From Closterium sp. NIES-65 (lineage: Eukaryota > Streptophyta > Zygnematophyceae > Desmidiales > Closteriaceae), in contig CANXME010000309.1 of NCBI GenBank assembly GCA_948144175.1, forward strand, positions 558,001 to 622,000: a DNA stretch of 64,000 bases, read 5' to 3'. Within the stretch, counting starts at the first letter, position 1. Each line of letters opens with the position of its first letter. Below are positions 6,036 to 63,000 of this stretch, in pieces. The notes under the pieces were generated by a model. The model was not told where the DNA came from. It made no database searches and saw only the letters and a list, made by a program, of their open reading frames with translations. The translations under genes and the position numbers were made by a program.

Positions 6036-9000
6036 ATGGAGGAAGTAGAGCTCGGCAGCGTTAATAACGAGTCTGGGCTGGTTATGAAGGAGGGAGGGTA
6101 TGCGGACAAAACGACGCAACAGCGGCGGAGGAAACTAGCGACAACCTTTGGAACGCAAGTTGACGCTATCATGCGGAGAAATCTCGCTTACCAGGTACGC
6201 ATGATATGTGATCGTCAAGCCTGCATGCGGACACTTCTCTGTAGGGCCTGCTGCAGTGCTGAATACTCACGCCAGGAAGGCTTGCATTTTATTGTCCGGA
6301 TTTGTCGCCTACACTGTGTTTCTGCAAGGGCTTACGGAAACAACTGGGTCGGTTAGTTCGACACAGTTGCTGGGGTATTTCGCACGAAGCACACGCATTT
6401 GTCACAACCAACGCGATGAATCTGACCCAATGCTATGCATGTAGGCCATAACGCTTTGGCGTGTAGTCGGTTCATGGACCATACCAGCCATATTAATTTT
6501 TGATAAGGATGATGCAGAATGAGCGGATCGTCATGCATTTCAGAGCGAGAAACCCCATCTGGTCGTATAAGACCTTGTTTCATGCGCGAAAACGATCCAC
6601 TTGGCCGCATGTCATGCACAGATGTCGTAGCATGCGTTCCATGGCTTTTCACATCATGTCGGGTGTTGAGGCGCCTCAAAACTAGACTTCTCGCATGTCA
6701 TGCACAGATATCGTAGCATGCGTTCCAAAGCCCTTCACAGTGTGTCGGGTGTTTTGTTTTCTGAGGCGTCTCAGAATCTTTTTTGGCGCGCGCGTAACGA
6801 TTCATGTTGCCGCATTTCCATTCTCTACCCCCTCATTTCACGGAAACGAACTTTGTCAGCAATTTGTGCGTCGTGAGTTGAAGCGTCTCACAAACCATCC
6901 ACCGCTGCATTTCTGTCTCCCATCTTGATCCCACAGAAACGCAACTGGGGCAGCAACAGGTGCCTCGTGAACCTGCCAGCTTCATGTGCCTCTTCTTCCT
7001 CTTCGTCATCCAACTCACAAACCATCCACTGCTGCATTTTTCTCCCCCCCAACCGCCCCCCACTCCTCCCCCCCCTCCCCCCTCCTCTCCCCTCCACTCC
7101 TCCCTTGTATCTCACAGAAGCGCAACTGGGGCAGCAACCTGTGCTTGGTTAGCCTGCCGGCCTTCATGTGCCTCACCCTCTTCCTCATCCAACTCCCAAA
7201 CCATCCACCGCTGCATTTCCTCCCCCCCCCCTCTCCCCCCCTTTCTCCCGTCCACTCTGCCCTGTATCTCACAGAAGCGCAACTGGGGCAGCAACCTGTG
7301 TCCGGTGAGCCTGCCGGCCTTCATGCCTCTTCCTCTTCCTCATCCAACTCACAAACCATTCACCGCTGCACTTCTCCCCCTCCCCTCCCCAACCCCCCCT
7401 CTCCTCCCTTCTCCTTTCCACTCATCCCCCGTATCCCACAGAAGCGCAACTGGGGCAGCAACCTGTGTCTGGTGAGCCTGCCGGCCTTCATGCCTCTTCC
7501 TCTTCCTCATCCAACTCACAAACCATGTACCGCTGCACTTCTCCCCCTCCCCTCCCCCTCCCCTCCCCACCCCCCCCCTCTCCTCCCTTCTCCTTTCCAC
7601 TCATCCCCCGTATCCCACAGAAGCGCAATTGGGGCAGCAACCTGTGTCTGGTGAGCCTGCCGGCCTTCATGTGCCTCTTCCTCTTCCTCATCCAACTCCT
7701 CATCGCCAACGTTCTCAACGCGCGCTTCAAGTGCGGCTGCGGCTGCCCCACTGAGTTCAAGAACCCCGACGGGTCCTGTCAGCCCGGAAAAAAAGTCTGC
7801 GGCCCACAGTACACCGACAAGCTCGGGCAGATTGCTTTTTGCGAGTTCCCACACCCGCCAGCCTGGCCGGCGTTTCTGCAGGTGCCGGAGGAGAAATTCC
7901 GGGCGGCGGACTGGGGGTCGGGCGGCGGCCTGCCGCCCAGCAGCTGCCGGGTGAAGCCGGCGAATTTCTCGATTGATGAGTCGACGAGCATGGAGGGCAA
8001 CGGGACATACCCGTGCTTTAACTCGGTCTTATACACGGGACAGAACCGGCGGATTGCTGACAGTGAGTGGCTGGCATTACTGGGCTGGGATGGGTGAGTG
8101 GGTAGGGAGAGTGCAGGTTGACGAGCATGGAGGGCAACGGGACATACCCGTGCTTTAACTCGGTCTTATACACGGGACAGAACCGACGGATTGCTGACAG
8201 TGAGTTGCTGGGGCGGACTAGACAATTAGTTATAATTATTGTGTGAGAGAGAAGGGGGAAGAGGGAAGAGAAGGGGGCCCAGTGCGGTTGACTTAATTCC
8301 GTCCTATAACACAGTGCCCTTTACGGAAATGGAAATGGCGCACGTTTGTGCAAGAGTTCTCTTAATCCCTCATTTCTGAGAATTCTCAAAAGAGTATTTT
8401 TGAGAATTCTCAAAAATACTCTGCAACAAAATGGCGCACGTTTGTGCAAGATTCTTCCGTTCCTCCCTCATTTCAACCCCAATCCCTCAATCCCCTCCCC
8501 CCATGCAGGCATTGGCTCCAAGCTCATCCCAGACGTGCCTCTCTTTTCCCTCCAAACCGCCAAGAAGAAGCAGAGCGTCATGCTCTACCTCACCGACCCT
8601 CCCTTCAACCAAACCTCGCCGCCAGCCTCAGCAGCGCCAGGCTTGGGACCCCCCCCGCCCGCCACAGCAGCAGCCGCAGGTCCGGCAGCGAGGAGAGGCC
8701 TGAGGAGGGTCGAAGAGGTGCTTCCAGCAAACGTGGTGCGGCGAGTGATTCAAGAAGCAAGCAAATGGGAAACCGCCACGCGCACGGGTTGCGGTGCCTC
8801 TGTCAATCCCGCCCGTAACCCCCATCGGGCACTGCAAGCCAGCGGTAACCCCCATCGGGCACTGCAAGCCAACGATAACTGGGAGACTGACGCAGGCTCG
8901 GGCGGTGGCAGCTTCGGCAGCGGCGGTAGCAGCGGCGGGGGGGGGAGCGGCGCGCTGGGGGGCATGGCGGGCGGGTTCGGCAACATGACCAGCGCAACCG

Positions 9001-14271: not shown

Positions 14272-14277
14272 ATATAT

Positions 14278-14397
14278 TCTACGACGATTGCTTCAGTGCG
14301 CAACCAAATGTCGATTCGGGCGTGGGGGTTCACCAACACCACTCTGGAAGACGTTTTTATCAAGATTGCCAAGACTGCCCAAGCCACTCCGGTCTAA
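14278..14397 (+). repeat. Duplicated end of the ABCA terminal exon
   Basis: About 120 bases of the terminal exon, from the TIASVR codons through AKTAQATPV and a stop, are repeated directly after the stop at 14271. The copy is about 95% identical and its frame is intact. It has no upstream start or acceptor, so it is expected to lie in the 3' untranslated region. Confidence 0.9.
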
Positions 14398-19592: not shown

Positions 19593-21521
19593 TCACAACC
19601 ACCCCGGTTGACTCGTCAAAACATCAGCTCCGGGCCCATCCGCCTCAATCGAGCACGCCCCCCTTACAGGGTCCAGATTTGCTTGCACTAAAAACCTCGA
19701 CCCGCGCACGCCAACAAGATTATACACCGCGCCGGTAACCGCATCCTTCTTCACATCCCCGTATTCGTGTGAGCAGATGTCGGCGTTCTCCTCGCCGTGG
19801 TCGTCGAACCACGTGGCGAGGAAGGGGCTGCTGGTGGCCTCTGCGAGTTCATGCGCCAACACCGACACCATCCCGTCCATCCCCGCATCCCCGTTCGGGG
19901 ACACTGCTCCGCGGCGGTTGAGACGAGGAGGGATGCAGCGCTTGGGACACTGTGGGAGGAAGGAGAAAGGCAGGGTGAAAAAAAGATGGAGAAGGAGAGA
20001 GTGAGCGGTGGGTCTCAAGCACAACACGATCAGGACCTGCTACGGAGCATGATAAATCATGGAATGGTTGTTTGCGGTTGCGACTTACCCTGGTGGCGGC
20101 ATTGCCAACGAATGCGATGGGGAGTTCCAGAGCATCGCGCGTGTAGAAGTGCCACCCGCAGTAGTTCCTGCAGAACGCGGATTTCTCCGGAGCAGTATCA
20201 TCTTCTTGCGCCACCGTTTGGTCTCCCATGACGAAATACACGCCGTTCGGGTCGTTCGCGAACTGCTTGCTGGTAACCGCGGACGAGACAAGTTTCGCCA
20301 CGTCGGTGCTGAGCAGAGTGCGGCCCTTGGAGTAATCTGCGTCGTCGATCTCCCCCTTTAGAGTCACATATGCAGAGATATGGTTGCCCATCGCGTCGTA
20401 GTATAGGCGATTGACGTTCCACCAGTTGGTGACTGTAGCGTCGGTGTCATTGCTGTTATTGAGTGACTCGATAAACGTGCGGATGATCTGCTTTTGCGCG
20501 TCTGTGAACTTGCCGTACCATATAAGGTACACTGAGATGGGCTTGTACATAACCCCGCAGTACTTTGTAACGGGGTTGCACACGCTGGAAACCTCGGGAT
20601 CATCCCAATGCGGGTCGATGTTGTGGAAGGCGGGGGAGTGGCGCGGCGGAAAAATCGAGGCGGAGGAGGAAGGTGCGCGGAGCGCTGAGGCGATCATCTG
20701 GCTCACAGCCTCGGGGGAAGGGGCGGGGGCGGAAGACACGGCGGAAGCGGAAGAAGCGGCGGAGGCGGAACGAGCCGCGGAGTTTACAGCAGCGGAAGAT
20801 GAGGAGACGGGTTCGCTGTTGTTGTGAAGGCAGAGGCGGGAGGAAAGACAGAGGATAGGGTGGAGAAGGGAGAGATGGGTGAGATGGGAGAAGCGAACGT
20901 GGGAAACTATTGAGAACAAGGCTGAGGTGCTAATAGTTGGGGAGAAATGCATTTCCGCGAATGGTGGTATTAGCGCGGCACCGCTCACCTCGTGTCGACG
21001 ACTTGCGCGATTCCCTCTGGCATCGCGCCGCGCATCAGAAGGTTATCGTCCGTGCGCTTGCGCCATTTCTGCGCGCGAAGAATAAGGGGAGAGACGAGGG
21101 AAGAGGAGAGTTTAGGCCACAGGGTCGCGGGGGAGGGGGAGAACAGGATAGTCATATGGGGGGAAGAAAGAGGGTGGGGGAGAGGGGAGGGGAGGAGGGG
21201 GAGAGGGGTGGGAAGTAGGAGGACAGCCATGACTACGACTCATGCTTGAACCAGCTATGCCTCGAAATTGACACCAATTCAATAGCTTGCTAACTGAGGT
21301 GTATAATGAGACGGCGTCTGAAGGCCGGTCAGGTATTTCTTTCTATGGCGCATCGAAAATTGCAGGGCGAGGCGAGACGAGTCTGTGCGACAATGGCGAC
21401 GACTTACGAGGAGTCGTCTGTGCTGTCGCGCGCAGGCGATGGTTGAGAGTGCGGCGAAGAGGAGGAGTGCGACGATGGCTCGTATATGGAACGACGGCCG
21501 GCTGATACTTTTAATTGCCAT
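19593..21521 (-). CDS. EXO2: EXORDIUM-like secreted protein
   Basis: Well-supported exons are one ending at 20089 (domain core) and 19949-19593 (C-terminus), joined in phase 0 at GNAATR / CPKRC. The core carries YCGVMYKPISVYLIWYGKF, WWNVNRLYYDAMGNHISAYV and VYFVMGDQTVAQEDD. The last exon carries AHELAEATSSPFLATWFDD, the conserved HE-containing block of the family. A first exon at 21521-21408 encodes 38 residues with a clear signal peptide (hydrophobic VALLLFAALSTIACA) and ends at a GTAAGT donor. Joining it to the core needs an intermediate exon or another acceptor between about 21230 and 20820, which I could not settle. An Ala/Ser-rich linker precedes the domain. The mature protein is expected in the apoplast or cell wall. 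Confidence 0.82.
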
Positions 21522-26278: not shown

Positions 26279-26933
26279 CGTCGTGTGCCAACGATATTTC
26301 AATTCTGATAGTGCAGGAAGACTCCAGAAGGACGAATTGATCTGAAGCTTATGGAGGATTCGTGTATTGGGAATCGCTGAGCTTGCTCGACCACTGAGAG
26401 TTGAAAGATATCCTGCGCCAAACTCTGATGCCGTGTGGGAGAGGATGAAAACGCAATGTCGAAGAAAAGCTATGCTTGTGGTTCTGGTTGCAAATGAATT
26501 ATGGGTGCGAATGTATAAGTCGGCGACAGCGAGGAACGAACGGTTTGCGAATTCACGAGCTCCTCTGTGAACCCCCTGCACATCCTGGTTACTGAGAGCG
26601 TGGACGATTTCATGCGAGCCCCCTCTTCGGTGCACATGATGTCGGCGAGTCGCATGTGTCTCGGTTTCCCGAAAGCGCGATCCGGATCGTCGTGACGCGG
26701 AGAACATCCCTAGCTTGTCTTTTTTGGCTGCCGCAATTGTCGTATTCTTCGGCAAAGCGATGGTGGGGGGAATTCGGCGGTGCCTTGACCAGCCAGACTC
26801 GGCACTGTACTGTAACCCCTAGATAAAACATAGGTCGGCGATCTAACGACAACGAAGAGGGGTACAGTGTGGTTCCAACGAACGGTGTAATTTACAAATA
26901 TGCCCAACTTTTATCATGGCCCAGCATGAACTA

Positions 26934-29900: not shown

Positions 29901-30295
29901 GCTTAAGAATAGGAGAAGCTAGAACGGCATGGGGAACCTGCAATTCGAAGGCGCCTCGCAATGGAAAGGCCGCGAACGAGTGTTTGTGAGAATGCCTTTT
30001 TCGCGATGAAGTTTAGGAACGTCTCAAACTCAACGGCGGGCTACGTTGAGATCCCTACCGTAACGGGCGCTTGTGGTGATGATTTGGCGAATGACGATAA
30101 GCTGACTAAAAGGCCGCGAACGGCGAGCTAGACTGAGATCCCTACCGTAACGCCGGGCGCTCGCGGTGATGATTCGGCGACGGAAATGACGGTAAGCTGA
30201 AGGAACGCAATTAGGAGTCCCAGGAACAGCGGAAGCGCGCTTCTGAAGTTGAGGCTCGTACGGGAACGCCGGATGCGGCGACAACGGGGCCGCAT
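26934..30295 (-). CDS. EXO4: EXORDIUM-like secreted protein
   Basis: Exons consistent in frame are: one ending at 28999, then 28731-28367, 27753-27569 and 27204-26934. They carry CGVMHAPVGVYLLWYG, WWAINTLYFDKQGRNISSNV, VYFVLSDEDVSQMDD, CPEGCIPPYLNQPG, the HELAEATSSPFLATWF block and GDVISDAASGVQYNV. The C-terminus has a Pro-rich linker and a hydrophobic tail (FLDKLIEFITHFFGF). Upstream of the domain is an Ala/Ser low-complexity stretch encoded by a GCA/GCT-type repeat around 29230-29335. A signal-peptide exon probably starts at ATG 30295 and ends near 30142 at a GTAGGG donor, but the exon order between 30142 and 29330 is unresolved. Partial exon copies fill the introns. Confidence 0.8.
27835..28860 (-). 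repeat. Partial exon copies within EXO4
   Basis: Decayed copies of the CPEGC exon start lie at about 27838-27890. Two copies of the 3' end of the WWAIN exon (YCGW...GNAVNQ plus GTAC donor) lie at about 28079-28180 and 28215-28320, the first frameshifted and the second with an in-frame TGA. A copy of the 5' part of that exon (PAWWAINTLYFDQQGRNISS) lies at 28855-28770. The intact exon is 28731-28367. Confidence 0.85.
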
Positions 30296-38020: not shown

Positions 38021-41000
38021 TCATGAGGACTGCGAGTCAGAAGCCTCCTTGAGTATGCGCCAAGGACCACTGGCAGTGCAAACCCTGTAACGAGTGTAAC
38101 AATAAAAGGGCATGTGGAATTGGCAGCTATGACGTTGATGAGAACAATGCTTTGAACCGAAAACAGGAAGAAAAAAAACCAACTCACTAACAAATCCAGC
38201 TTGGGAGATACAGTAGCAAGAACAACAGAAATTAACTGGATTACCTTGCCAAGCCAATGAGCATGCGTGCAGTCATGATGAGGGTAAGGCCGACCCACAC
38301 GCCATGGATGCCCATGACCTTTGGGGCATACGCCAGCACTCCAGCTATTGGGGGCATCACTGTGATCTGGCAACGTGGAGTGGCGGGGAGAGCCAGGGAG
38401 GATAAGAGTGAGGTCGACCCACATGCCATGGATGCCCATGACCTTTGGCGCATACGCCAGCACTCCAGCTATGGGCAGCATCACTGTGATCTGGCAATGG
38501 GGTGAGAGATAACAGAGGGAAACAGCAGGGCATGAAGACACAAGAGGAGGTGAAGAGCATGGAAAGTGGCAAGGAGGGTGGGAGCAGACGTGACTCCAAT
38601 AAAGTCAGTCTGGGAGCTCACAATTGCAGTGGCGGCTTAGGCAAAGTCGGTCGTGCCGTAATGCAACCCGTCAAAGACACACTTTGAGGTGGCTCAGTAA
38701 CGGAGGGAGGGAGCAAGAGAAGACTCACCATTGCAGTGGCAGCGTAGGCAAAGTCAGAGGCGCCGTAATGCAGCCCGTCAAAGACAAAGGCGAGAGATGT
38801 GATGGGCTGTGTGGCCGCCACGAACTGGGGGAGTGGGGGACACGTGGGAGGGATGGCGGAAGCGGGAAATGGGGTGAAAGAGAGACTTTCAAGCGAGTCG
38901 TTCGAATGTTGCATAGGCGACGTGATGGGCTACATGGCTGCCATGTTGTTTTTGAGACGTCTCAAAAACAACCTCCCTTCACATAGGCGACGTGATGGGC
39001 TACATGGCTGCCATGAAGTGGCAAGTTTCGCAAATGGGAAGATGGAGGAAGGAATTAGAGTGGGTGGTTTGGAATTAGGAGAGTGGAATTAGGAGGGTGG
39101 AAGTAGGAGAGTGGAATTAGGAGAGTTGAAGTAGGCAGGTGGAAGAAAGGGAGTGGAGCTACGGATGCAAGTCATTACATACCGGCATCAGGGAAGTCAG
39201 CGCCTTCTGAACAGTGTGATCGGATGTGAATGCGCGGGGGATGTAGGGCGTGGCGAGGGTGAGTAGGGCCGCGGTGGTGAGGCCCATGAGCAGCGCCATC
39301 TGTGTGGCTCGCATGGCGATCCTCCTCACCCTCCTCGCATCGTGGCGTGCGAAAGCTGATGCTAGCATGGTCTGGGGGGGGCGGAGGGGGGGAAGGTGAA
39401 GGGAGGAAAGAGGGGGGGGAAACAGAGACACAGACAAAAATATTTGAAGGGATGGCAAGCAAAGAAAGGATAGAGAGGATTGAAACTGGGGGAAAGCGAG
39501 GCAAGGAGGGAGACGGATCTGGTGCAACGCCATACATGTGTGGCTGTGTCCCCTGTCTCCCCTCTGTCCCTTCTCCCATGTTATCCTCTCCCTTGTTTTC
39601 TCCCTCTCCCTCACCTGGGCGCCAAGAGCATCAGGTCGTACATAACCAAAACCGCGAGCCAAATCTGCATGGTGATCTGAAGCGCTGCCATGCTCGTGTG
39701 GCCCTGCCTGCCTGCCTCGCCTCCTCCTACCGTCTCCCTTCACCCCTCTCCCTTGATTTCACACCCCCCCTCTCCCTCACCTAAACACCAAGAGCCACGT
39801 GTTTGAAGAAGGTTTTGAGACGTCTCAAAGCACTTCTTCAACCACGTAGCCAGACATGAGAGACACTGCGAGCCAAATCTGCATGGCGATCTGGTGTGCC
39901 GCCATGCTCGTGTGTGTGGCCTTGCCCGACTTCTTGCCTCCTCATACCCTTACTCACACTCCCCACCCACCCCTTGCTGCCCTCACCTGGGCGCCAAGAG
40001 CCACGGAGTCGGACATGAGAGACACTGCGAGCCAGATCTGCATGGCGATCTGATGCGCCGCCATGCTCGTGTGGCCCTGCCGCGCTGCCATGGAGGTGGC
40101 GAGGGTCATGGTGCAGAGCAGGGCGAGAGTGCGACCCAGCAGGAGACCACCTGCACAACGCAGGAGTTAGGAACGGTGGAGAGGGGTGAAGCGAGGTGGT
40201 TATACGGAGATGGCGAGGGTCATGGTGCAGAGCAGGGCGATTGTGCGACCCAGCAGGAGACCACCTGCACAAGGGAGGAGTACAGAGTGGTGGAGAGCAG
40301 TCAGAAGCAGTGCTGCCGTGCTGCCATGGAAGTGGCGAGAGTCATGGTGCAGAGCAGAGCGAGCGTGCGACCCAGCAGGAGACCACCTGGAACAGGGAGG
40401 AGTCAAGAACGGTGGCGAGGGTTGAAGTGAGGAGCTGCCATGGAGGTGGCGAGAGTCACCTCCATGCAGGGCGAGCGGTGAGGCAGGTATGAAGAGGCGG
40501 GGAGGGGAGGCTGCAATGAAAGCTGCAATGCTGCACTGCGCTGTCACTGTCACTGTCACTGTGGCTGCAGCCTGAGAATCACTTGTGACAAGTCTTGAAT
40601 CAGGTGAGATTGAAAGACCTCTATACTCACCTGATTTGAGGAAGCGGTCAAGCTTCAAGTGAGAGAGGCGGGGAGGCATGAGCACCACGCGTTGGCTGAG
40701 CTGCCACAGCATGAAGGCCGCAATGCTGTACTGCGCTGTCACTGTGGCGAACGCTGCCCCGCTGACGCCCAGCCCGCATGCAAACATGAGGAGCGGATCC
40801 AAGGCGATGTTGACGATGTTGCCGCCCACTGGTTAGAAGGAGATGAAGGAGAAGTGGAGCAGAACGAGGAGGGAGAGGAACAAGGGTGATGCTTTGAGGC
40901 GCCAGAAAGCAAAGGTTGCTACGCTGATGCCCAGCCCGCATGCGAACATGAGGAGCGGATCCAAGGCGATGTTGACGATGTTGCCTCCCACTGACGGGGA

Positions 41001-43564
41001 AGTGGAGGGGGTGGAGGGAAAGGAGTGGAGAAAGCGAAAAAAAAACGGTGTGATGCGACAACAGATATACACGGGGGAAAAAGAAAAACGTTCAGTGGTA
41101 GGTTCGTGCGTACCTTGAGCGATAAGCGGAGTGCGAGTGTCCTTAAAGCCTCGGAACACCCCTTGAGTGGCCAGAGCCAGCACCACAGCAGGCGCGCCCA
41201 GCGCCCTGAGGGAGAGGTAGTGCAGCGCTGGCCCGCGCATGGGCGAGGTCTGCAGGACACAGGCAAGCCGAGAAGGGAATAAACGGGGGAGGAGCAAGGA
41301 AATGGGGAGATGAGTAGAAGTCACATAGCAGGTGCACCCGGCGCCCTGAGGGAGAGGTAGTGCAGCGCTGGCCTGCGCATGGGCGAGGTCTGACGCACAT
41401 ACACCGGAGGACGGAACGCACAGGGGGGAGAAACATGGAGACGAGCGGATGGGGAGAAGAAGCAATGCAGGCAGGCGCACCCAGCGAACTCAGAGAAAGG
41501 TAGTGCAGGGTTGGTCAGTCCCCGCATGTGCGAGGTCTGATCTGATGCACACAGCGGCGCGAGGAGAGGAACAGGGACATGGGAGAATGAGAAGAAGAGG
41601 AGTTTTTTGAGGCGCCTCAAAAATCTGATGCACACAGCGGCGTGAGGAGAGGAACAGGGACATGGGAGAATGAGAGGAAGAGGAGGAGAAGCAACGCACG
41701 CGCACCCAGCGCTCTGAGGGAGACATGGTGCAGCGCTGGACCGCGCATGGGCGAGGTCTGACGGATGAAGAGAGGGTAGCAGAGAAGGTTGCAAGGGCAG
41801 CCAGGAAAAAGGGGAGGGAGACGGGGGAAGGGTTGGGAGGGAGGGAAAGAGACGGTTGAATCCATTATACATAAGAGAAGTGGGCTTGTTTTAAATGAGA
41901 GTCAAACTGAAAAGAGTAGGAAGACTGAAGAAGACACAATAAGGAAGAACACTAAACAAGGAGTAGGACAAGACACCCACCGCAGGGACGCCCATGGCTC
42001 CGAGAATGGGTGCAGCAGCAGAGGCGAGCACCACAGCCTCGACAATCCCGAGAATGGCGCCCACCAGCAGCGCTGCTGACACCGCAGGCACCACTCGCTT
42101 CTCACCCGCCGCTTCTGTTGCTGCGGACGCTGATGCTGCTGGTGGTTGTGGGGAGCGAAGCGAAGACAGAAGGAGAATGGCAAGGTATGAGAAGATTTAT
42201 ATTGAAAAAGAGAAGAGATTAGCGAGCAACAAGGGCAGGAATAGAAGGAATGAGACAAGAAGATCTGCTTGTCGTCTAGAGGCGCCTGATTCCAAGATGA
42301 GAACGCATGCGGATCATCACATCAGTCCCAGTACCTGATTGTTTCGTGAATCAACTCGAGAGTTACCTGATTTCGCTCTGGCTTCGCCATCCTCAGCGAC
42401 GAAAGAGGTGGTGATGTTGAGGAGGGGGAAGTTGAAGACCTTCGAGACAAGGTTGAACACTGAGATGGACACGCCAATGGCCGCGAGACTCACGGCTCCT
42501 GCAGACACCCACAGGGACACACACAGGCAATGCGGACGATCCCAAGGAGGGAGGGGGAGGTGAGGTGGGGGACGTGGTGAGGTTGAGAAGGGGGAAGTTG
42601 AAGGTCTTAGACGCGAGGTTGAAAACTGAGATGGACACGCCAATGGCCGCGAGACTCACGGCTCCTGCAGAGACTCGCAAACAATGCACTTCAGACACCA
42701 GATAAGGAAATGTGACAATTACAATACGAACATGTTTTTAGAAAGTATAAAATGGTGGTATTTACCGGTTCGTGCAATGAATGCGGTCTCCGTAAGCTGC
42801 GCGACAGGCTCCGCCAATCCGGCGATGACAGCAGGGATGGCGAGCTTGATGAGCTCCCCTGCGACGCCTTTCGGAGAGATCCTTCTCAGCGACCTTCTGT
42901 GTGGAGAAAAAACAAAGGAATCGAAAAAAGGAGTCTCGAACCTGATTTAAAATACAAACCAACTAGCTGTGTATATTAGGCATCGATAATAACCAACTAT
43001 CTCCGTAACTTGGTTTAAAGTGACTTAAAGTATGTCGTCCAACACAGAAGTAAGGATGAGGTTACTGATGCCTAGTATCAGAGTAATTACTGATAGCAGT
43101 AAGGAACGATCACAGGCGACTCACCTAGTTTCCCTCCAAACCTCCGACAGCCCATCCTGCTGCCGTCCCCTAAAGTCTTCATGGGGATTGATTGCCGCTT
43201 GGGACCTTACTCTGCAAGGAACACTAGCAGCCTTTCTTGCTTGTGCGTGCTCTAAACCCTCGGACAGACAAGCCGACCCATCGGTCAAAAGCGTGAAGCA
43301 AAGGTTCGTCTCTCCAGCGAAGAATGGCGAATGGCGTAACTGGCACTGGCGACAGCGCGAGAGAGGGACTGGCGAAACAAGAGCCCTGGATTCGCAGCGT
43401 CGCAGCTTCGAGATCGGAACAGAGGCACGCCGGGGATTCGGCGGCAACAGGTGGTTGCTTCCTGCAGTGTTAGCATTGATAGTCCTTGTACGAGAGCTTT
43501 CTACCGCCGTGGCTCCTGTGAGACAGCAGCTTCCTTGGGTCACCTGATTGATCAGACTTGCCAT
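38021..43564 (-). CDS. Plastid-type MATE family transporter
   Basis: Eleven exons keep one frame: 43564-43125, 42896-42766, 42498-42367, about 42138-41981, 41249-41114, 40828-40631, 40150-39987, 39371-39183, 38824-38729, 38366-38245 and 38069-38021, giving 604 residues. The first roughly 120 residues are Ser/Arg-rich with few acidic residues and look like a chloroplast transit peptide. The MATE body carries PAVIAGLAEPVAQLTETAFI, AIGVSISVFNL, GVFRGFKDTRTPL, NIALDPLLMFACGLGVSGAA, FVFDGLHYGASDFAYAA and HGVWVGLTLIMTARMLIG, and ends in SGPWRILKEASDSQSS. This resembles the plastid clade that includes EDS5/DTX44-47-like proteins. MATE proteins export organic solutes by H+ or Na+ antiport; the substrate is unknown. 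An ATG 23 codons further upstream is an alternative start. Confidence 0.9.
38430..38700 (-). repeat. Copies of MATE exons 9 and 10
   Basis: A second copy of the exon 10 start (ITVMLPIAGVLAYAPKVMGI) lies at 38490-38400. A copy of the exon 9 3' end (VFDGLHYGTTDFA) at about 38678-38615 has TAA where the functional exon has TAC. Both are decayed relics. Confidence 0.85.
38910..39016. repeat. Perfect 28-bp ACGT-core palindrome between direct repeats
   Basis: Positions 38945-38972 form a perfect 28-bp palindrome centred on GAGACGTCTC with TTTTT/AAAAA and GTTG/CAAC arms. On both sides lies the 34-bp sequence CATAGGCGACGTGATGGGCT and onward (38912-38945 and 38981-39014), itself a decayed copy of the MATE exon 9 acceptor region. 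Confidence 0.92.
39600..40480 (-). repeat. Tandem copies of MATE exon 7 edges
   Basis: The exon 7 3' end (MAAHQIAMQIWLAVSLMSDS) recurs at about 39690-39605 and 39900-39780. The exon 7 5' end (GGLLLGRTLALLCTMTLATS) recurs at about 40262-40200, 40388-40320 and as a shorter relic near 40460. The assembled exon uses 40150-39987. Copies differ from the functional exon at scattered positions. Confidence 0.88.
39795..39847. repeat. Palindromic insertion in a MATE exon 7 copy
   Basis: In the sister copy at 39981-40077 the sequence runs uninterrupted through AGAGCCACGGAGTCGGACAT. Here about 47 bp are inserted after GCCACG. The insert has a perfect 16-bp core TTTGAGACGTCTCAAA at 39814-39829 and longer imperfect arms (ACGTGTTTGAAGAAG / CTTCTTCAACCACGT). 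CCACGT occurs at both edges (39795-39800 and 39842-39847) and could be a target-site duplication, although the arms are also inverted repeats. Confidence 0.85.
40895..42670 (-). repeat. Partial copies of MATE exons 3, 5 and 6
   Basis: Exon 6 start copies lie at about 40990-40910. Exon 5 start copies (SPMRxPALHYLSLRALGAPA) lie at about 41395-41335, 41540-41475 and 41760-41700. An exon 3 start copy (GAVSLAAIGVSISVFNLASK) begins at about 42664. Each retains the acceptor and loses the donor side. Confidence 0.85.
41541..41685. repeat. GCGC-core palindrome between 60-bp direct repeats
   Basis: The perfect 20-bp palindrome TTTTTGAGGCGCCTCAAAAA occupies 41604-41623. It lies between two copies of a TCTGATGCACACAGCGGCG segment (41541-41602 and from 41624), about 60 bp each and about 95% identical. 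Confidence 0.93.
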
Positions 43565-53300: not shown

Positions 53301-56300
53301 GGGAGCAGAAGAATCACCGTGCTGTTCAAGAGAGTGATAATAAGGGGGGTGAATGAGGGCGGCCTACCAGAAGCTCTAGAGGCACTGAGGGTCGGCGCAG
53401 CACGGCGATTGCTGAGTCAGCATCGCCTTGCTGAGGTGGCGACACCGGATTGGATGACATGTTTGATCAGGCACAAAGGGGAGACAGGAGAGAGCGGGAG
53501 GAGAGAGAGGGACAAATCTATCGACCACTTGAGCAGCTGCTTACAAATTGCTCGGAATGCGAGACGTCTCAAATCATACATACCCGAATAAAGTGTTCAA
53601 TCACTGTCTCGTGCCGCTGCTTCAGCCCCGCAGAGTTTTGAGACGTCTCAAAACACGTCTCATTATTTGAGACGCCTCATTCATGCCTCTCATAGTTTGA
53701 GACGTCTCAAAACATACATACCCGAATAAAGTGTTCGATGACTGTCTCGTGCCGCTGCTTCAGTCCTGCAAAGTACACCAGCTCCTCCTCCCGACCATAG
53801 CTGCAAACACACACCACGGTCAACACAGGTCAACACAGGTCAACACAGGTAAACACAGTCAATACAGGTCAAGACACGGAGCCTCTCATTTTAGTCCTGC
53901 AAAATACACTAGCTCCTCCTCCCGACCGTAGCTGCACATGCACACACAGGTCAACACAGGTCAACACACGTCAATCCACGTCAACACAGGTCAAACCCAA
54001 TCGGATGAAGGAATTACCCCTCATTACCAATCACCACACCTCATCAAACCTTATCACCCCTCACCACCAATCACCACCTGGCAAGCAGCTTCACAGTCGT
54101 TGCTTCTTCCAGCACGCCCTTTCAGTCTGTTGAAGTCAGCAGTACGTATCGCCCCTCGCCACCCCTCACCACCGCTCATTACCACGTGTCACCCACCTGG
54201 CGAGCAGCTTTACAGTGGTGGCTTCATTCAGCACGTCCTTGCAGTCACTGAGGAACGCTCTGAACGCCGCCACCACCCTTCTATACTCCTCTCTCAACCC
54301 TTCCACTCCTGAACCCTCCTTCGAACCTCCCGTCCTTGATCCTTCCGCTCCTGTCCTGCTTCCTTCCCCAGCAGCACCAGCAGCACCAGAAGCACCAGCA
54401 GCACCAGCAGCACCAGCAGCACCAGAAGCACCAGCAGCAGCAGCAGCAGCAGAACTGGACTCGGACTTGGTAGCTATCGAATCGTGCTTCTCAAAGTCAG
54501 GTGGCAGTTGCAGCAACAACCGGTTGATCTGAGTAGGGAGAGGGGGGAGAGGAGGGAGAGGGGGGAGAGGAGGGAGAGGAGGGAGAGGAGGGAGAGGAGG
54601 GAGAGGAGGAAAAATATGGAAAACATGGGGACGAGTGAAACGAAGAAAACTTGATAAGGGGGACAGGGAAGGGTGAATTATGGGCCTACCTAGAAGGAGG
54701 GAAGGGAACAAAAGGTGGGCATCGAGTGGAGGGACAATCGCGCATGTGCGAAGTGACTTTTGAGTCGACTCTAAAGTCACCTTGGGAACAGAAGGTGGAC
54801 ATCGAGTGGAGGGACAATCGCGCATGTGCGAAGTGACTTTTGAGTCGACTCAAAAGTCACCTTGGGAACAGAAGGTGGACATCGAGTGCAGGGACAATCG
54901 CGCATGTGCAAAAGGGGCACTAAAGGTGGAGGCATCATGCATACATAGATTATACATATCATTGAGTGCACATCTGAGTGTTACCTTGTGAAGATACAGC
55001 GCATACGCCCACGCATGGCCACCATTGTCATTTCAGTCGACTCGAAGTTCACCTTGTTAAATGGCACACAGTGCCTGGGCTTGTGCTTGTGTGTCCCTGC
55101 GCCACACAACTCTGTGTGTTGCCTTGTCATGATACAGCGCAGACGCCCACGCGTGGCCACCATTGTCATTTGCATCGACTGAATAAGTCACCTCGTTAGT
55201 CTGCAGCACACAGTGCATGTGCTTGTGCTTTTGTGTCCGGCACTTGTGCGTTACCTTGTCAAGGTACAGTTCTGAAGCCCACGTGGCCACCATGGTCATC
55301 TGCGCGCGCTCCTGCTTGGGTAGGTGGTCCAGCTTGTGCAATAAGAAGCTCCTCAGGGCGTCCCACACACACACGCCTATCTGTTTACCTTGTCAAGATA
55401 CGCCTTCGTGTCCGGCAGATGTGTTACCTTGTCAAGGTACAGTTCTGAAGCCCACGTGGCCACCATGGTCATCTGCGCACGCTCCTGCTTCGGTAGGTGG
55501 TCCAGCTTGTGCAGTAGGAAGCTCCTCAGGGCGTCCTGCTGCCCTGCCTCCACGAATTTGAGCGCCACCTCTTCAAATGGCACCTGGTGGGCCGTCTGGA
55601 GGAAGGAGCGAGTGTGTGGAGAGAGAGTGGGGCAGGGGGGAGACATGCATTGGTTGTGCTTTGGTGTGGGCAAGGTTTCATGGAAAGGAGCAGAGCAGAG
55701 CGCCCTGCTGCCCCGCCCCCACGAATTTGAGTGCCACCTCCTCAAATGGTACCTGGTGGGCCGTCTGGTGGGGGGGAGAGGGTGAAGGGGCCACGCAAGG
55801 CAGGCAGGCATGAGTTGATTTGAATGCCGGAAAGGAGAGCAGAGCAGAGCGCCCTGCTGCCCTGCCTCCACGAACTTGAGCGCCACCTCCTTAAAGGGCA
55901 CCTGGTGGGCCGTCTGGTGGTGGGAGGGAGCAGGTGGAGCGTGGTGGGAAGGATTTGAGTGAGTGCAGGCACGGGGCAAAGCAGCCCATCCTGCTGCTGC
56001 TGCCCTGTTTTTATGAATTTGAGCGCCACCTCCTCAAAGGACACCTGGTGGGCCGTCTGGTGGGGGGAGCAGGGAGGGGGCAGGTAATGGTTGTGGTCGG
56101 GTGTGGGTAAGGTTTGATTGAAGGGAGAGCGCAGAGCGCCCTTGGAGGCGCCTCAAAAGAGAGCGCAGGGCGCCCTGCTGCCCTGCCTCCACGAATTTGA
56201 GCGCCATCTCCTCGAAAGGCACCTGGTGAGCCGTCTGGTGGGGGGAGATGGGGTGGGCGGTGGCGAGAGGTGATGAGTGGTGGTGAACGGTGATGGGAGA

Positions 56301-59300
56301 TAGGGCGGGCAAGCATCCACGAACTTGATACACATGCAATCACTGTGCGGTTGACAAGCGTACCCGAGCAAAGAAGGTGGCGGCTCTTTCATAGTCCCCG
56401 TCCTTGAACGCGGATTCAGCTTGGGCGGCATACACCCTGTCGCGCTGCAGGGGCGTGCGGCAGGAGGAGAGGGCCATGGTGTAGTCGTGCCTGTCCAGAT
56501 ACACCTTCATCCTGCCCCAACCACTGTGTGTGTTGTGCAGAAACACGTACCCGAGCAAAGAAGGTGGCGGCTCTTTCATAGTCCCCATCCTTGAACGCTG
56601 ACTCTGCCTGGGCTGCATATACCCGGTCGCGTTGGAGCGGTGTGCGGCAGAAGGAGAGGGCCATGGCGTAGTCGTGCCTGTCCAGATACACCTGCCACAT
56701 GGCCCTGCCCTCGTCGCACACAGCAATCTGGGGAGAAAAGACGGTAGAGGGGGGAGCAATTGGGGGAAGAGACGGGAGTTTGTCAGCAGAGCAGCCATGG
56801 CGTAGTCATGCCTGTCCAGGTATACCTGCCACATGGCCCTGCCCTCGTCACAGACAGCAATCTGGGTTGGAAAGTTGACAGAGCGAGAAGGGAAGGGAAC
56901 GGGAGGGAGGGTGTGTGTAAGCACCCATGGCGTAGTCATGCCTGTCCAGATACACCTGCCACATGGCCCTGCCCTCATCGCACACGGCGATCTGATGCGA
57001 AGGGGAGCACAGATAGAAGGAAACGGAAGGACATGGTGAGTGGTGGGTGTAAGCACCCATAGCATAGTCATGCCTGCCCAGATACACCTGCCTGCCACAC
57101 GGCCCTATTGAAATCACTTTTGAGAATTCTCAAAAGTCATAACGTAGTCGTGCCTGCCCAGATACACCTGCCTGCCACACGGCCCTATTGAAATCACTTT
57201 TGAGAATTCTCAAAAGTCATAACATAGTCGTGCCTGCCCAGATACACCTGCCTGCCACATGGCCCTCCTTGATGGAGCAGAAGGCATAGTAGGCACCTCG
57301 CATAAGATCATGTCCACACATGCATAATCTATGTCTGCATGTATTCTAGTGACTTCTGAAAATTCTCAAAAGTCACTCGAATTTGCATGCATAATCTATG
57401 TCTGCATGTATGTATGCAAGTATGACACACACACACACACACGCGCGCGCGCGCACACGCGCGCACATGCACCTCGTATATGTTGTTGGAGCAGAATGCA
57501 TAGTAGGCTGAGGCAACCTCGTCAGCAACCAATCCGAGCATGCCACCTGGCGCCATCTCCAGAGCGGTGGCATGAAAGGGCAGCTGATCCACCAGCACCT
57601 CGCTCACTTGGTTGACAATCTGTTGACAGGCAGGGAGAAGGTTGGTAGAGCATGGGAGGTGGATGAGTGGGTGGGGGCCCGGGGGAAGCACAGGAAGAGG
57701 AAAGTGCGTGTTTGCGTGGAAGGGGAGTTGATCCACCAGAGCCTCGCTCGCTTGGTTCATGATGTTTGGGAGAGGGGAGAGACATGCGAGGTGACTTTTG
57801 AGTCGACTCAACAATCTGTGGGAGTGGGGAGAGACATGCGGGAGGGGCACTATTGAGGGAGCGGGTGGTGAGTGTCAAAGGACAGGAGGGGGGAAAGGTT
57901 GGGGAGAGAGGTGGAAGAACAGGGAAGACGGAATGTGTAGCATGCTGCATGATGGCAGGGAGGGCAAAGGCATGCAAGGGCAGCTGATCCACCAGCGCCT
58001 CGCTCACTAGGTTCATGATCCGTTGACATGAGGAAAGGGGGAGGGGCAGGCAGGTGTCTTTTGAGGCGCCTCAAAAGGGGGAGGGCAAGGCAGGCGCCTC
58101 GCTCACTAGGTTCATGATCTGTTAACATGAGGAAAGGGGGAGGGCAAGGCAGGTGTACCTTCGGATCTTAAGGGCGACCTTGCCTACTGCTGCCCTTCTT
58201 CATGAGCACAGAAACATGAGGGAAAGGGGGAGGAGGGCAAGGCAGGTGTACCTTCTCACGCACCCACCCTCCCTCCAGTTCCTCCGCCCCCACACCCGCC
58301 CCAGCCACCTGATCACCTTGATGTGGTCGTTGTACGCAGAGCAGCCAGAGCCATGCTGCTCTTCCTGCACTGCACTGCACGCCCTCACAGAGTTTATATT
58401 GGAGTGACGTTTGAGAATTAACGCACAGGTGTACCTCACAAAAGTCACTCCAATACAACTGCACGCCCTCACAGAGTTCGCTCGCTCGTTGTGAGTTAAC
58501 ACAGGCAGGCAGAGCACACTAACGGCTGCTCTGCCTGTCAGGAATAACGGCTGCTCTGCCTGCGTTAACTCCCTCCCCACGGGGCCCCATCACACCTTGA
58601 TGTGATCGCTGTAGAGCAGCAGCAGGTGGAACTCAGACACTGCCATTGCCGTCGGATGCTCCACCGCAGCCGCACCGGCAGCAGCACCAGCACTGTCGTC
58701 AGTGTCATCTGCGCTGCTAATGGGACCGGCTGGGAGAAGCTTGGCGAAGGGCAGCAGAGACTTGCGCTGGATGGGGGGCTCTGATGAGGAGCTGGAGGGG
58801 GGGGGGAAGGGGCGAGGGTGGGAGAGGGCGGGGAGAGGGCAGGAGACAGGGAGATGAGGGTGTCCCTGTGGGGCACACACAGACAGACAGTGCTGGGAGC
58901 AGCTTGGCGAAGGGCAGCAGGGACTTGCGCTGAATGGGGGGCTCTGATGAGGTGCTGGAGGGGGAGGGGGAAGGGGAGAGAGGGTGGGCGATAAGTAGGG
59001 GACACTAATGGGACCGGCTGGGAGCAGCTTGGCGAAGGGCAGCAGAGACTTGCGCTGGATGGGGGGCTCTGATGAGGAGCGTGAGAGGAGGCTGCAGGGC
59101 GGAGAGGGAGAAGGAGGGCGAAGGAGGAGCGGGAACCAAAGCGATCTTTTGAGGGGAAAATCAGGCATTAGCAGGGTGGGTGACTTTTGAGTCGACTCAA
59201 AAGGGACACTGACGGGGCTGGCAGGGAGCAGCGTGGCAAAGAGTGGTAGCATCATGTCATGCACGCATCATGTCGCCCAAATATGCATCATGACGGTAAT

Positions 59301-60024
59301 GACCACTGCACGGATGTTGACAGCATTATCTTTAAGTGGCGGATCTACCCGGAGAACGTGGCGTTGCGGTTGAGGTGCCCGATGAGCACACCAGGACGCT
59401 TGAATCACTACCTGAATTACTACCTGATATTTCAAAAACCACCTGATGAAAGTACCTGGAGGAGGTGGCGTTGAGGTTGAGGTGCCCAAACAGCACACCA
59501 GGCCCCGCCATCCATGCAAACCCTAAGTCAACTCAATAATCGACTCAAACAGCAGCACCTGTCGCCTGCACATACCTGGAGGACGTGGCGTTGAGGTTGA
59601 GGTGGCCGAAGAGCACGCCAGGCCCCGCCATCCATGCAAACCGCTCTGCGTACCGCTGCTGGCGACCAAAGAAGTGCAGCGAGCTGAGGGGTGATAACGG
59701 CAATGGCGGGGGGAAGGGAGGGAGAATGGAAGGGAGCCGTGCGAGCGTATGAGCGTTAGACGACGCTGGCTGGCAGATCAATGAGCTTGGGCAGCTGCTG
59801 AGACGCAAAGGGCTTCTGACACTTCTCAAAACTCGATAAGGTTCTCTTTGAGTGGGGCAGAAGAGAGGAGAGCGCGAGGAATCAAATGAATGAGCGCCAT
59901 ACCTTGCAATTAGTGGGGACAAGGCTGGAAGCTCGATGAACTTGGGCAGTTGAGATGCGAAGGGTGACTTTTGAGAACCCTTAAAGCTCAAAAGCCGTTT
60001 CTGAGACGTCTCAACAGTTGTATG

Positions 60025-60062
<38 letters not shown>

Positions 60063-63000
60063 GGTACCTTGGTATGAGGGGGGATGATGCGGGCAGCTCG
60101 ATAAACTTGGGCATTTGAGATGAGAAGGGTGCAAAGGTGGCCTGCAGTTTGAGAGGGGGCGAAAGAGGGGGGGGGGGAAGGAGAGCAAAGGGACATCTAG
60201 TGTGGGAAGCAATGGAAGAAAACGATTGGAGCAAGGAGGAGGGAAAAGAGTTAGCAGCGGGAGAAATGGATGATGGGACTGCAGGAAATTGACTTTTGAG
60301 TCGACTCAAAAGAAATGGATGATGGGACTGCAGGAAATCCTCTGAAAGCAGGAAATGAGTTAGCAGCGGGAGAAATGGAACACAGAAAACAAAAAGAGGA
60401 AGCGGGGGAGAATTGAACGCAATTGCTTGACCTCAATAATGCCAACGCATGCCTCAATCCTTACCTCTCCTACTGCTTACTTGATGTGACTGACTAACCT
60501 CGAGAGACGTGGAGCCGACAAAGGCAAGGAGGCGAGTGGCTGTGGCGGCCAGGACGAAGAAGCGCTGAGATGATGCGCCTGGCGCAGTTGTACCTCCCCC
60601 GGCTCCTCCTCCCCCTGCAGAAAAACCTCCCCCTGATGAGCCTCCCCCGTGTAATCCCAGCACTTCCATCTGGGGTTGTATTCAGGGCAGTGATTGGTGG
60701 AAAGATGCAGGAAGGGAGGATTAGAGGCGCTGCCCTTCGATTTAAAGCACATTTATTCAATATAGTCTTCCAATAATAGTGGGCAATTTCCTTCGATATA
60801 GGTGCACTGCCTTCCTTTAAGAGCACATACCTGGATGCCCCGAAAGGGGCACTTTTCAGCGTCGGGCAATTCGAAGAGCAGCTTCAGCGGGCGGTCTCGC
60901 TTGTCTGCTTCCTCGAACGCCGCCTCGTAGAGCCGCCCGCCCTCCGTGGCGAGAATGATCTCCCGCGTGCTGCCTGGCGTGGAGAGAGATGGTGGGGGTG
61001 AGACGTGGTGCAGAGTGGTTCAAAGCGGCGCAGGCATGCCATGGGATGGATAGGCATGGGTGGTCTAGAGTAATCTCCTGCATGCTGCCTACCGTGGAGA
61101 GAAGGGGGGGGGGGGGTGAGACGTGGTAAAGAGTGGTGCATAATGGTGCAGTGCGGTGCAGAGCGGCACAAAACAAAGGATACCATCATCATGTGCCATG
61201 CCATGTGGTTCACTCTCCACACCATATCCATTCCATCGCCCCATCATACCAGCCCAGCATGAATTCCCCAAATCTCCACCACACATACCATCATGTGCCA
61301 TGGGAGCAGGCTGCCATGCCACAGCAGCAACAGCCCCAATGGCCATGCGACGGAGTGCCACATGCTCCACTCCTCATGTCCCATGCCCCATACTCAACCA
61401 CCCCCGCACATACCATCATGTGCCATGGGAGCAGGCTGCCATGCCACAGCAGCCACAGCCCCGATTGCCATGCGATGCCGTGCCACATGCCGCGCGCGCT
61501 GCCACCCCCCATGCACATACACCACATCCCAGTACGTCCCTGCTGCATACATCCCTGCCACCGCTCCCCCCGTCCCACTGCCACTCCCATGCCCATGCCC
61601 ATGCCCATGCCCACTGCTGCCACTCCCACTGCTACTGCTGCTGCCACTTGCCCTGCTGCCGCCGCTATTGCTGCTGGTCGTTGGGGGTGTTGCGGGGGCG
61701 CCGAGGGGCGTGTGTTGCAGCACGGCGAGTGTGTGGCGGCCGCCCGGGTCAACGAATACGCTCTTCACGTGTATGCGGTAGGACCCGTTGATGGGGGTTG
61801 CAGATGGGTACGAGGAGGTGGTGGAGGAGGAGGAGGAAGAGTCTGGGGGGATGTAAGACGCTAGGTTGATCTCTGAAGAAGGTGGCACGGGTTAGGAGGT
61901 GGGCGGGAGAGAGAGGGGACAAGGAAGGGAAGGGAAGGAGAGAGATGGAAGAGGGGAAGACGGGAAGTGGGTTTAGAAGTCAGGTCAGGCAAGGAGACTA
62001 TTGCGTCGACTCAAGATGTAGGATGCTAGGTTGATCTCTGAAGAAGGTGACAAGGTTAGGAGGCGGGAGGGAGAGGGGAGGCGGGGAGGAAGGGAGGGAG
62101 GTAGGATGGAGAGTGAGTGTATGAAGGTCGGGAAACACAGATCTTCACATTGCTGCTGCTCACCACTGCGCTGCTCTTTTCTGAGGTGCCTCGACAATGG
62201 AATCGCACCCACTCATCCCACGCCCACCCACCCGCCCGCCCGCCCGCCCGCCCGCCTGCCCACCTGCCAGCTCATCATTCAGGAAATCATATCGCACGAG
62301 CCAGCCGTCGGACGTGCCCACCGCCACCACGGAATTGCCGGCCGCGCCGCTTCCCCCTGCCGTCCACCCTCCTTACTTCATTCATGAATTCCTCCCCTCC
62401 ATCCCTGGCCTGCCACGTCATCCCACCCACCTGCCAGCTCATCATTCAGAAAGTCGTATCGCACGAGCCAGCCGTCAGAAGTCCCTACGGCAACCACGGA
62501 GTTGCCCGCGGCGCTGCACGTGATGCGCCCATGGCCCAGCGCCGCGTGGGCTTTAAGCACCTCCACGCTGAACAGAGGCTCGTTCGAGTCGCTGAACCGC
62601 TGCTGCTGCTGCTGCTGACGTGGCTGTTGCTGACGTGGCTCATCCTCGTCCTGAGGACCGGGTTGTTAAGGGGGGGCGGTTGGTTAGGGGTGGGGGAAAA
62701 GGAGTGGTGCAGAGCGGTGAGGAGTGGTTATAGCAAGTACATTGCAATGCGGCGCCCCGCACGTGATGCGGTGCGGCGGCCGTGGCCCAGCGCTGCATGG
62801 GCTTTAAGCACCTCCACGCTGAACAGCGGCTCGCTCGAGTCGCTGAACCGTCGCTGCTGCTGCTGACGTGGTTTGCCTTCGTCCTGAGGCTGGGTTGTTT
62901 AGGGAGGAGCGGGAGGAGGAAGAGTGGTGCGGGGTGGAGAAGGAAAGGGAACGGTGAGGGGCGGTGGGGAGCGGTAAGGAGCGGTAAGACCATCGCGTCG

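What the first reader, a model, noticed from the sequence alone, without database searches (positions are those of the whole stretch)
6606..62020. A dispersed family of short palindromes with constant arms and four interchangeable self-complementary cores
About 20 clear and several decayed copies share the form TTTTGAG-NNNN-CTCAAAA. NNNN is always its own reverse complement: GCGC (6666, 13688, 41604, 56145, 58058), ACGT (38945, 39814, 53561, 53635, 53696, 60002), TCGA (54753, 54833, 57798, 59184, 60293) or AATT (8391, 57116, 57196). Constant arms with a variable but always palindromic core are not expected from chance, microsatellites or ordinary MITEs. They fall mainly in introns of ABCA, MATE and VPS18. 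I know of no described element with this design. It could be a miniature palindromic mobile element, a programmed hairpin insertion, or a scar of a repair pathway.
Basis: seen in the sequence. Interest (0 to 1): 0.93.

Follow-up and report, generated by a model that had tools for sequence, protein, structure and literature searches.

The report
Palindromic inserts at duplicated break junctions
In the nuclear genome of a Closterium alga, tens of thousands of near-identical 18-letter mirror-image DNA inserts occur, and in the stretches examined most intact ones lie between two copies of a short duplicated stretch, which looks like the scar of a break-repair process that adds the same small tail to both broken ends.

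Summary
TTTTGAGNNNNCTCAAAA occurs 30,327 times exactly in this 874-Mb Closterium assembly, against 4 for the reversed pattern. In 264 kb read in full, 49 of 52 exact copies have a core of TCGA, GCGC, ACGT or AATT; the other 3 are one step away.

38 of 51 non-redundant exact copies lie between two copies of the local sequence (X), against 98 of 1000 random positions; X is 16-71 bp. X copies diverge as palindromes decay (rho -0.43), so both appear equally old. The centre is fixed. Outer arms vary in length and sequence, yet are symmetric copy by copy. At 14 loci, by my merging of paralogues, one arm unit (TCGACTCAAAAGTCACC) directly follows itself, at six or more clearly on one side only.

Best reading: scars of staggered double-strand breaks. 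Both 3' ends received a short templated tail ending in a self-complementary tetranucleotide, and the tails annealed. The duplication is shown; the tail mechanism is inferred; enzyme and template are unknown. No clean empty site was found. I know of no described element with this architecture.

The parts
6606..6749 (.). X58 (6606-6663) - palindrome GCGC (6664-6681) - X58 copy (6692-6749)
8333..8451 (.). X23 (8333-8355) - two AATT palindromes (8374-8391 with 1 mismatch, 8398-8415 exact) - X23 copy (8429-8451)
38912..39015 (.). X34 (38912-38945) - TTGT - ACGT palindrome (38950-38967) - ACAACCTCCCTTCA - X34 copy (38982-39015)
39813..39830 (.). ACGT palindrome, 1 mismatch, longer imperfect symmetric arms (GAAGAAGG / CACTTCTTC); no flanking duplication found
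41540..41685 (.). X63 (41540-41602) - TT - GCGC palindrome (41605-41622) - X63 copy (41623-41685)
53636..53712 (.). Two ACGT palindromes (53636-53653 exact, 53695-53712 with 1 mismatch), decayed relatives around them
54704..54909 (.). Array X-TCGA-X-TCGA-X (palindromes 54758-54775 with 1 mismatch and 54838-54855); paralogue on contig C763 has only X-palindrome-X
56141..56158 (.). GCGC palindrome, 2 mismatches, at the edge of a VPS18 exon match
57058..57266 (.). Array X-AATT-X-AATT-X (palindromes 57118-57135 and 57198-57215); paralogue on C763 has a single palindrome
57319..57411 (.). X26 - TCTAGTGAC - decayed AATT palindrome (57354-57371) - GTCACTCGAATTTG - X26 copy
57767..57840 (.). X22 (57767-57788) - AGGTGAC - TCGA palindrome, 1 mismatch (57796-57813) - ATCTG - X22 copy (57819-57840)
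57995..58156 (.). X63 - GCGC palindrome (58059-58076) - X63 copy (boundaries approximate)
59185..59202 (.). TCGA palindrome, exact, left arm GTGAC; no flanking duplication found
59969..60016 (.). Two decayed copies (59969-59986, 59999-60016)
60263..60338 (.). X27 (60263-60289) - TGAC - TCGA palindrome (60294-60311) - X27 copy (60312-60338), both X copies identical

Best explanation
Each copy is the scar of a repaired, staggered double-strand break in the nuclear DNA of Closterium. Step 1: the broken ends overlap by X (16-71 nt), and both copies of X survive. Step 2: each 3' end is extended on the same short template, starting at a variable position and always stopping at the same template end. 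The added tail reads (..GGTGAC)TTTTGAG-TCGA, or ends in ACGT, GCGC or AATT for other templates. Step 3: because the last four letters are self-complementary, the two tails anneal, gaps are filled and nicks are sealed, giving X - arm - TTTTGAG-NNNN-CTCAAAA - arm - X. Step 4: later the X+palindrome unit can expand into arrays. Shown: the insert, the duplication, ageing of the two together, the fixed centre with asymmetric copy-specific arms, tandem arm units, and array copy-number difference between paralogues. Inferred: the break, the templated tails, the annealing. A template-bound, telomerase-like reverse transcriptase would fit, but neither enzyme nor template was identified.
For: (a) Duplication: 38 of 51 non-redundant exact copies flanked by X, against 98 of 1000 random positions and 44 of 292 positions 400 or 700 bp away. 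That set includes 17 stretches from two other contigs; 15 of those 17 had a repeat scoring 16 or more, L032's at a distance. (b) Same age: X identity 0.968, 0.934, 0.935, 0.914, 0.831 for palindromes with 0 to 4 changes, Spearman -0.43, p = 0.0009, n = 56. (c) Arms beyond the 18-mer are symmetric copy by copy: mean 2.12 nt in 93 copies, against 1.13 for same-core re-pairings, largest 1.52 in 1000. Examples are L033 GAGTGAC/GTCACTC, L036 GTGAC/GTCAC and L030 AAAAGTTGGG/CCCAACTTTT. (d) Fixed centre, variable asymmetric outer ends. (e) The single-arm unit TCGACTCAAAAGTCACC follows itself directly, junction GTCACC|TCGACTC, with no left arm at that junction; the pattern that includes this junction gave 78+25 matches genome-wide, control 0. 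I count 14 independent loci with it. (f) At two independent loci (L052/L053, a compound locus, and L056/L064/L107) the outer unit is cut short next to X while the inner unit is complete, as expected if a first partial copy is followed by a full one. (g) A half product: at C309:583860 the insert ends at TTTTGAGGCGC(C) with no right arm, 9 nt before the second, diverged X. (h) Of 39 stretches chosen for tandem arms, 31 have X around the block; 6 of the other 8 end inside an array.
Against: No clean empty site was found: near-identical paralogue alignments show no break at single copies, and diverged paralogues could not be aligned through introns. Short matches between X ends and the template were not above my expectation (21 of 39 junctions, null about 17). 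13 of 51 exact copies and 49 of 67 decayed copies show no duplication by my criterion. The 17-nt unit is the commonest, not the only, tandem unit: other spacers (TAG, TTGAG, TGAG, TTG, TGGAG, TCGAG) occur at about 11 further loci, and long uniform arrays can grow by slippage. The tandem-arm matches are few beside all copies (103 matches, against 30,327 places). Nested pairs that reuse the same X ends (C309:541984/542050 and C6:104156/104215) are not predicted by independent random breaks. No template RNA or enzyme was identified.
Confidence: 0.5

Rival explanations
1. Target-primed reverse transcription of short RNAs by a LINE-type machinery. Nicks staggered by 16-71 nt give the duplication, and both target ends prime on the same RNA and run to its 5' end (twin priming), so the two cDNAs meet as a palindrome.
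For: The duplication varies in length, the centre is fixed and the outer ends vary; arms are symmetric per copy.
Against: No preferred nick motif was seen at X ends by eye (not tested statistically). Tandem arm units are not expected from a linear RNA copied once. X up to 71 nt is long for LINE duplications (recalled).
Confidence: 0.2
2. Template switching during replication or break-induced synthesis: the polymerase leaves X, copies an existing palindrome elsewhere, and returns to the start of X.
For: Local duplications without the palindrome are also very common here: 356 non-redundant loci in 264 kb, 60 of them holding a family member.
Against: Copying a donor palindrome with flanks predicts non-symmetric flanking sequence from the donor. 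Instead the arms are symmetric per copy, and one family supplies nearly all long perfect palindromes.
Confidence: 0.14
3. A miniature transposon consisting only of its terminal inverted repeats, moved by a transposase in trans.
For: Inverted repeats and flanking direct repeats are present; high copy number.
Against: The duplication is not of fixed length (16-71). The fixed point is the centre, not the outer ends. The core comes in four self-complementary forms.
Confidence: 0.08
4. The palindrome is a pre-existing break hotspot: extrusion causes local breaks and duplications around it, so X is a consequence and not part of the insertion.
For: Arrays of X+palindrome differ by one unit between paralogues; nested pairs share X ends.
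Against: Clean singles read X-palindrome-X with one palindrome and two X, e.g. 60263-60338. Duplication of X plus palindrome would give two palindromes. It does not explain how 30,000 copies spread.
Confidence: 0.08

Closest known systems
Interstitial telomeric sequences inserted by telomerase at double-strand breaks (PMC2246262; passages read)
   Same: A constant short repeat inserted at breaks by a template-bound enzyme; some loci have target duplications; an in-register start is reported there.
   Different: There the insert is TTAGGG telomere repeat, and duplications are the minority (6 of 130 rodent, 4 of 25 primate loci). Here the insert is usually head-to-head, centred on a self-complementary tetranucleotide, and most exact copies read lie in duplications. 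No link to the species' telomere was shown.
Small tandem duplications by CST-Pol alpha-primase fill-in at staggered breaks (PMC8355091; passages read)
   Same: Both copies of the staggered overlap are kept, giving small duplications (overhangs there as small as 43).
   Different: No constant insert at the junction in the passages read.
Short palindromic repeats of Volvox carteri organelles (PMC2670323; passages read)
   Same: Short palindromes dispersed in non-coding DNA of a green alga.
   Different: Those are organellar, about 50 nt on average with a 3-5 nt loop (TAAA/TTTA), and were judged inert in the nucleus. The term target site duplication counts 0 in that paper.
Ultra-short or palindromic mobile elements of fungal mitochondria (MUSE1, double-hairpin elements, A/T palindromes; mentioned in PMC7218506, passages read)
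   Same: Very short elements that appear mobile.
   Different: Mitochondrial; different sequences; the term duplication counts 0 in that paper.
Introners (PMC9860276; listing and start of abstract only)
   Same: Very many insertions lying in genes.
   Different: Introners are whole introns (recalled); here an insert of some 18-60 bp, in VPS18 mostly outside exon matches.

Membership tests
Interstitial telomeric sequence (telomerase-inserted) | insert is the species' telomere repeat | not tested
   Search for TTTAGGG arrays did not complete; 20 contig ends of 250 bp hold no TTTAGGG, which says little.
Interstitial telomeric sequence (telomerase-inserted) | break ends in register with the template (microhomology) | tested here: inconclusive
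   21 of 39 TCGA-template junctions match by at least 1 nt; my own calculation of the null is 0.44 because duplication ends are ambiguous.
Interstitial telomeric sequence (telomerase-inserted) | first unit partial, later units complete | tested here: inconclusive
   Seen at two independent loci abutting X (L052/L053, L056/L064/L107) and, with a spacer, at L096; at L037, L048/L057, L061 and L063 the outer unit is complete and the match runs 2-3 nt further.
Interstitial telomeric sequence (telomerase-inserted) | empty orthologous site | tested here: inconclusive
   No empty site in paralogue alignments.
TIR/MITE transposon | target duplication of fixed length | tested here: not met
   X ranges 16-71 bp in 56 copies.
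TIR/MITE transposon | fixed outer ends | tested here: not met
   Arm lengths between X and the 18-mer vary from 0 to more than 20 nt.
Organellar short palindromic repeats (Volvox type) | loop of 3-5 nt and organellar location | tested here: not met
   Perfect palindromes without loop, in contigs with spliced nuclear genes; organelle genomes were not examined.
Small tandem duplications at staggered breaks | direct duplication of tens of bases at the junction | tested here: met
   38 of 51 exact copies.

The most novel reading that the evidence does not exclude
Closterium mends double-strand breaks with a built-in linker. A telomerase-like enzyme with a small set of template RNAs adds the same tail to both 3' ends; each tail ends in a self-complementary tetranucleotide (TCGA, ACGT, GCGC or AATT), so any two broken ends become cohesive and are joined. 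The genome carries tens of thousands of such scars.
Probability: 0.25. Interest if true: 0.96.

Novelty: categorically new. Interest (0 to 1): 0.87.

Why it matters
If the tail model holds, this is a form of end joining in which the cell supplies its own sticky ends, in a close algal relative of land plants, with more than 30,000 datable scars as a record. It would also tie together telomerase-like synthesis, small tandem duplications and intron growth. Even without the enzyme, it is a large repeat family with an architecture that fits no described transposon class known to me, and it may provide a dense natural map of past breaks.

Tried and rejected
Ordinary explanations considered and set aside: chance (control); microsatellite or low complexity (constant 7-nt arms at exactly 4-nt spacing); sequencing adaptor or assembly artefact (near-identical paralogue contigs align through the same copies, copies decay with their X, arrays differ by one unit; raw reads not available); RNA gene (Rfam at gathering scores finds only a tRNA at 63315-63387 in the window); known motif in print (the listings showed no description of it; open-access library only, listings and passages, no whole paper read).

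Led nowhere: paralogue C429 was too diverged for introns; kinase-like paralogue at C6:120 kb likewise; microhomology test inconclusive; 20 contig ends for telomeres; per-core counts genome-wide and the canonical-telomere search did not complete.

Script errors: the duplication finder used had an index fault that lengthened X in a few rows when the match ran off the left flank; scores were unaffected. It crashed and was corrected; the counts used are. One search dropped copies with an identical 10-nt flank on either side; one search dropped copies with an identical left 10-mer and copies more than 4 changes from the four forms.
Full report
ORIGIN. The window is G000:C309:558001-622000 of an assembly of 874,075,685 bases in 2400 contigs. 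Its EXORDIUM-like protein is 80% identical to one of Closterium sp. NIES-68, and VPS18 of Closterium sp. Naga37s-1 matches it in exon-like segments at up to 100% identity. It is therefore taken as a Closterium nuclear genome; assemblies of 438-975 Mb are reported for the C. psl. complex (PMC10407611, passages read; 'palindrom' occurs 0 times in that text).

OBSERVATION. TTTTGAGNNNNCTCAAAA with up to 2 mismatches occurs 27 times in the window, against 0.29 in shuffles. Genome-wide there are 30,327 exact places, against 4 for the same pattern read backwards. In 264 kb read in full (window, 100 kb to its left, 100 kb of contig C6) there are 52 exact copies: TCGA 20, GCGC 13, ACGT 10, AATT 6, and 3 others one step from these. 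With up to 3 mismatches there are 128, against 10 for the reversed pattern. The arms are 4 nt apart: 52 pairs, and no more than 4 at any other spacing up to 59.

THE DUPLICATION. Most intact copies read lie between two copies of the same local sequence. With a corrected script, 38 of 51 non-redundant exact copies, 8 of 24 with one change, 2 of 11 with two, 6 of 17 with three and 2 of 15 with four have a flanking direct repeat scoring at least 13; this compares with 98 of 1000 random positions and 44 of 292 positions 400 or 700 bp away. X is 16-71 bp long. A clean case in the window is 60263-60338: GAAATGGATGATGGGACTGCAGGAAAT - TGAC - TTTTGAGTCGACTCAAAA - the same 27 bases again. Identity of the two X copies falls from 0.968 to 0.831 as the palindrome decays (Spearman -0.43, p = 0.0009, n = 56), as expected if both arose together. 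The 118 copies of that set include 17 stretches from contigs C9 and C10, where 15 of 17 had a repeat scoring 16 or more.

FIXED CENTRE, VARIABLE SYMMETRIC ARMS. The insert between the X copies has the same centre, but its outer ends vary and differ on the two sides. Outside the 18-mer the two arms tend to mirror each other copy by copy: mean run 2.12 nt in 93 copies, against 1.13 when left and right arms of copies with the same core are re-paired (largest of 1000: 1.52). Arms differ between copies, yet match within a copy (GTGAC/GTCAC, GAGTGAC/GTCACTC, AAAAGTTGGG/CCCAACTTTT). 22 of the 93 have no symmetric letter beyond the 18-mer. A family of conventional elements would share its arms; here each copy seems to have been made symmetric when it was made.

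ONE-ARM UNITS. At C9:134018 the right side carries the unit TCGACTCAAAAGTCACC twice with no second left arm. A genome search for such tandem arms gave 78 forward and 25 reverse matches, control 0, about 100 of them listed. I fetched 40 stretches at or beside these places. Merging paralogues by eye, the junction GTCACC|TCGACTC occurs at 14 independent loci and other spacers at about 11. Of 39 stretches with a block, 31 have X around it; of the other 8, six end inside an array (L049, L062, L089, L100, L101, L105) and two fail (L102, L107). At L061 one unit stands on the left and two on the right; at L064 it is the reverse; L037, L048/L057, L052/L053 and L063 are likewise one-sided. At L052/L053 (where other sequence lies between the left X and the palindrome) and L056/L064/L107 the outermost unit is cut short while the inner one is complete, which slippage of a single short arm would not give directly. 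Long uniform arrays (C1756, C885) may well be slippage.

ARRAYS. Two arrays in the window (54704-54909 and 57058-57266) have two palindromes; the near-identical paralogue on contig C763 has one at each place and reads X-palindrome-X. The other copies in the two stretches compared with C763 show no alignment break, nor do the single copies of C6 against C1658 and C347, so no empty site was seen. Diverged paralogues were uninformative.

MECHANISM. The simplest process I can find that gives X on both sides, a fixed centre with a self-complementary tetranucleotide, variable and asymmetric outer ends, per-copy symmetry and one-sided tandem units is: both 3' ends of a staggered break are extended on one short template with a fixed end, and the two tails anneal by their last four letters. 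This would make the cores self-complementary of necessity. Enzyme and template are inferred only. A telomerase-like enzyme fits the repeat addition; insertion by telomerase at breaks is argued for mammals, with duplications at 6 of 130 rodent and 4 of 25 primate loci and in-register matches in 67-80% (PMC2246262, passages read). My own in-register test was inconclusive (21 of 39, null about 17 by my calculation). Fill-in of staggered ends to give small duplications is described in PMC8355091 (passages read).

AGAINST THE READING. No empty site. 13 of 51 exact copies lack a duplication by my criterion; some of these stand next to another palindrome, which shortens the flank examined, and some have one further away. 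Nested pairs reuse the same X ends (C309:541984/542050 and C6:104156/104215); I can explain this only by re-breaking at an older palindrome. The frequency data come from four contigs; the L048-L067 and L088-L107 sets were chosen because they carry tandem arms and say nothing about frequency. Per-core genome counts, the telomere sequence and TERT could not be searched because the tool was busy.

INTRONS. In the VPS18 span 13 of 15 copies (up to 2 mismatches) lie wholly outside protein-matching segments. One copy on C6 (109299, X60) seems, by eye, to duplicate the end of an exon-like segment with its splice donor: if X spans the splice site, the gene keeps one complete exon and the remainder becomes intron. 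This could explain why scars collect in introns, but it is inference.

NOVELTY. The listings of ten full-text searches of the open-access library showed no description of this family or of an element with this architecture. Subscription journals were not searched. The parts of the process have known relatives; the combination (constant head-to-head insert with a four-letter self-complementary centre inside a long variable duplication, in tens of thousands of nuclear copies) matches no kind that I know.

Noticed in passing
window and C309/C6 stretches (264 kb): Local direct duplications are extremely common: 356 non-redundant loci with X >= 17 bp in 264 kb, only 60 of them holding the palindrome; several seem to duplicate exon ends with splice sites.
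   Followed up: partly
window 56340-57104 and 55845-56059: Partial copies of VPS18 exons in tandem (protein residues 237-261 and 297-320 matched several times).
   Followed up: partly
window 3595-4003: 87-bp tandem repeat, 4.7 copies, in an open frame (29-residue protein repeat); four units hold a decayed family palindrome TCTTGAGGCGTCTCAGAA.
   Followed up: no
window 32998-33100: A different palindromic insert (GGGGATTTTCTGAGAATTCCAGAAAATCCCTGCAA) between two copies of a 34-bp stretch: possibly a second insert family.
   Followed up: no
window 36001-37630: Repeat with many 77-97% copies on other contigs, probably a transposable element.
   Followed up: no
C309 vs C763:259461-305586: The compared parts of the window have a 96-100% identical paralogous or allelic region on another contig.
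   Followed up: partly
L049 and L105 (C1051:2985550-2986170): Long internal array of 17-nt units close to TCGACTCAAAAGTCACC, telomere-like in appearance but 3 Mb inside a 4.4-Mb contig.
   Followed up: no
C309:540851-541110 (L013) and C6:137344-137484 (L024): Direct-repeat arrays of 42 bp and 20 bp whose units contain a single TTTTGAG arm.
   Followed up: no
window 19647-34000: Cluster of EXORDIUM-like (PF04674) gene fragments on the minus strand.
   Followed up: no
window 63315-63387: tRNA gene.
   Followed up: no
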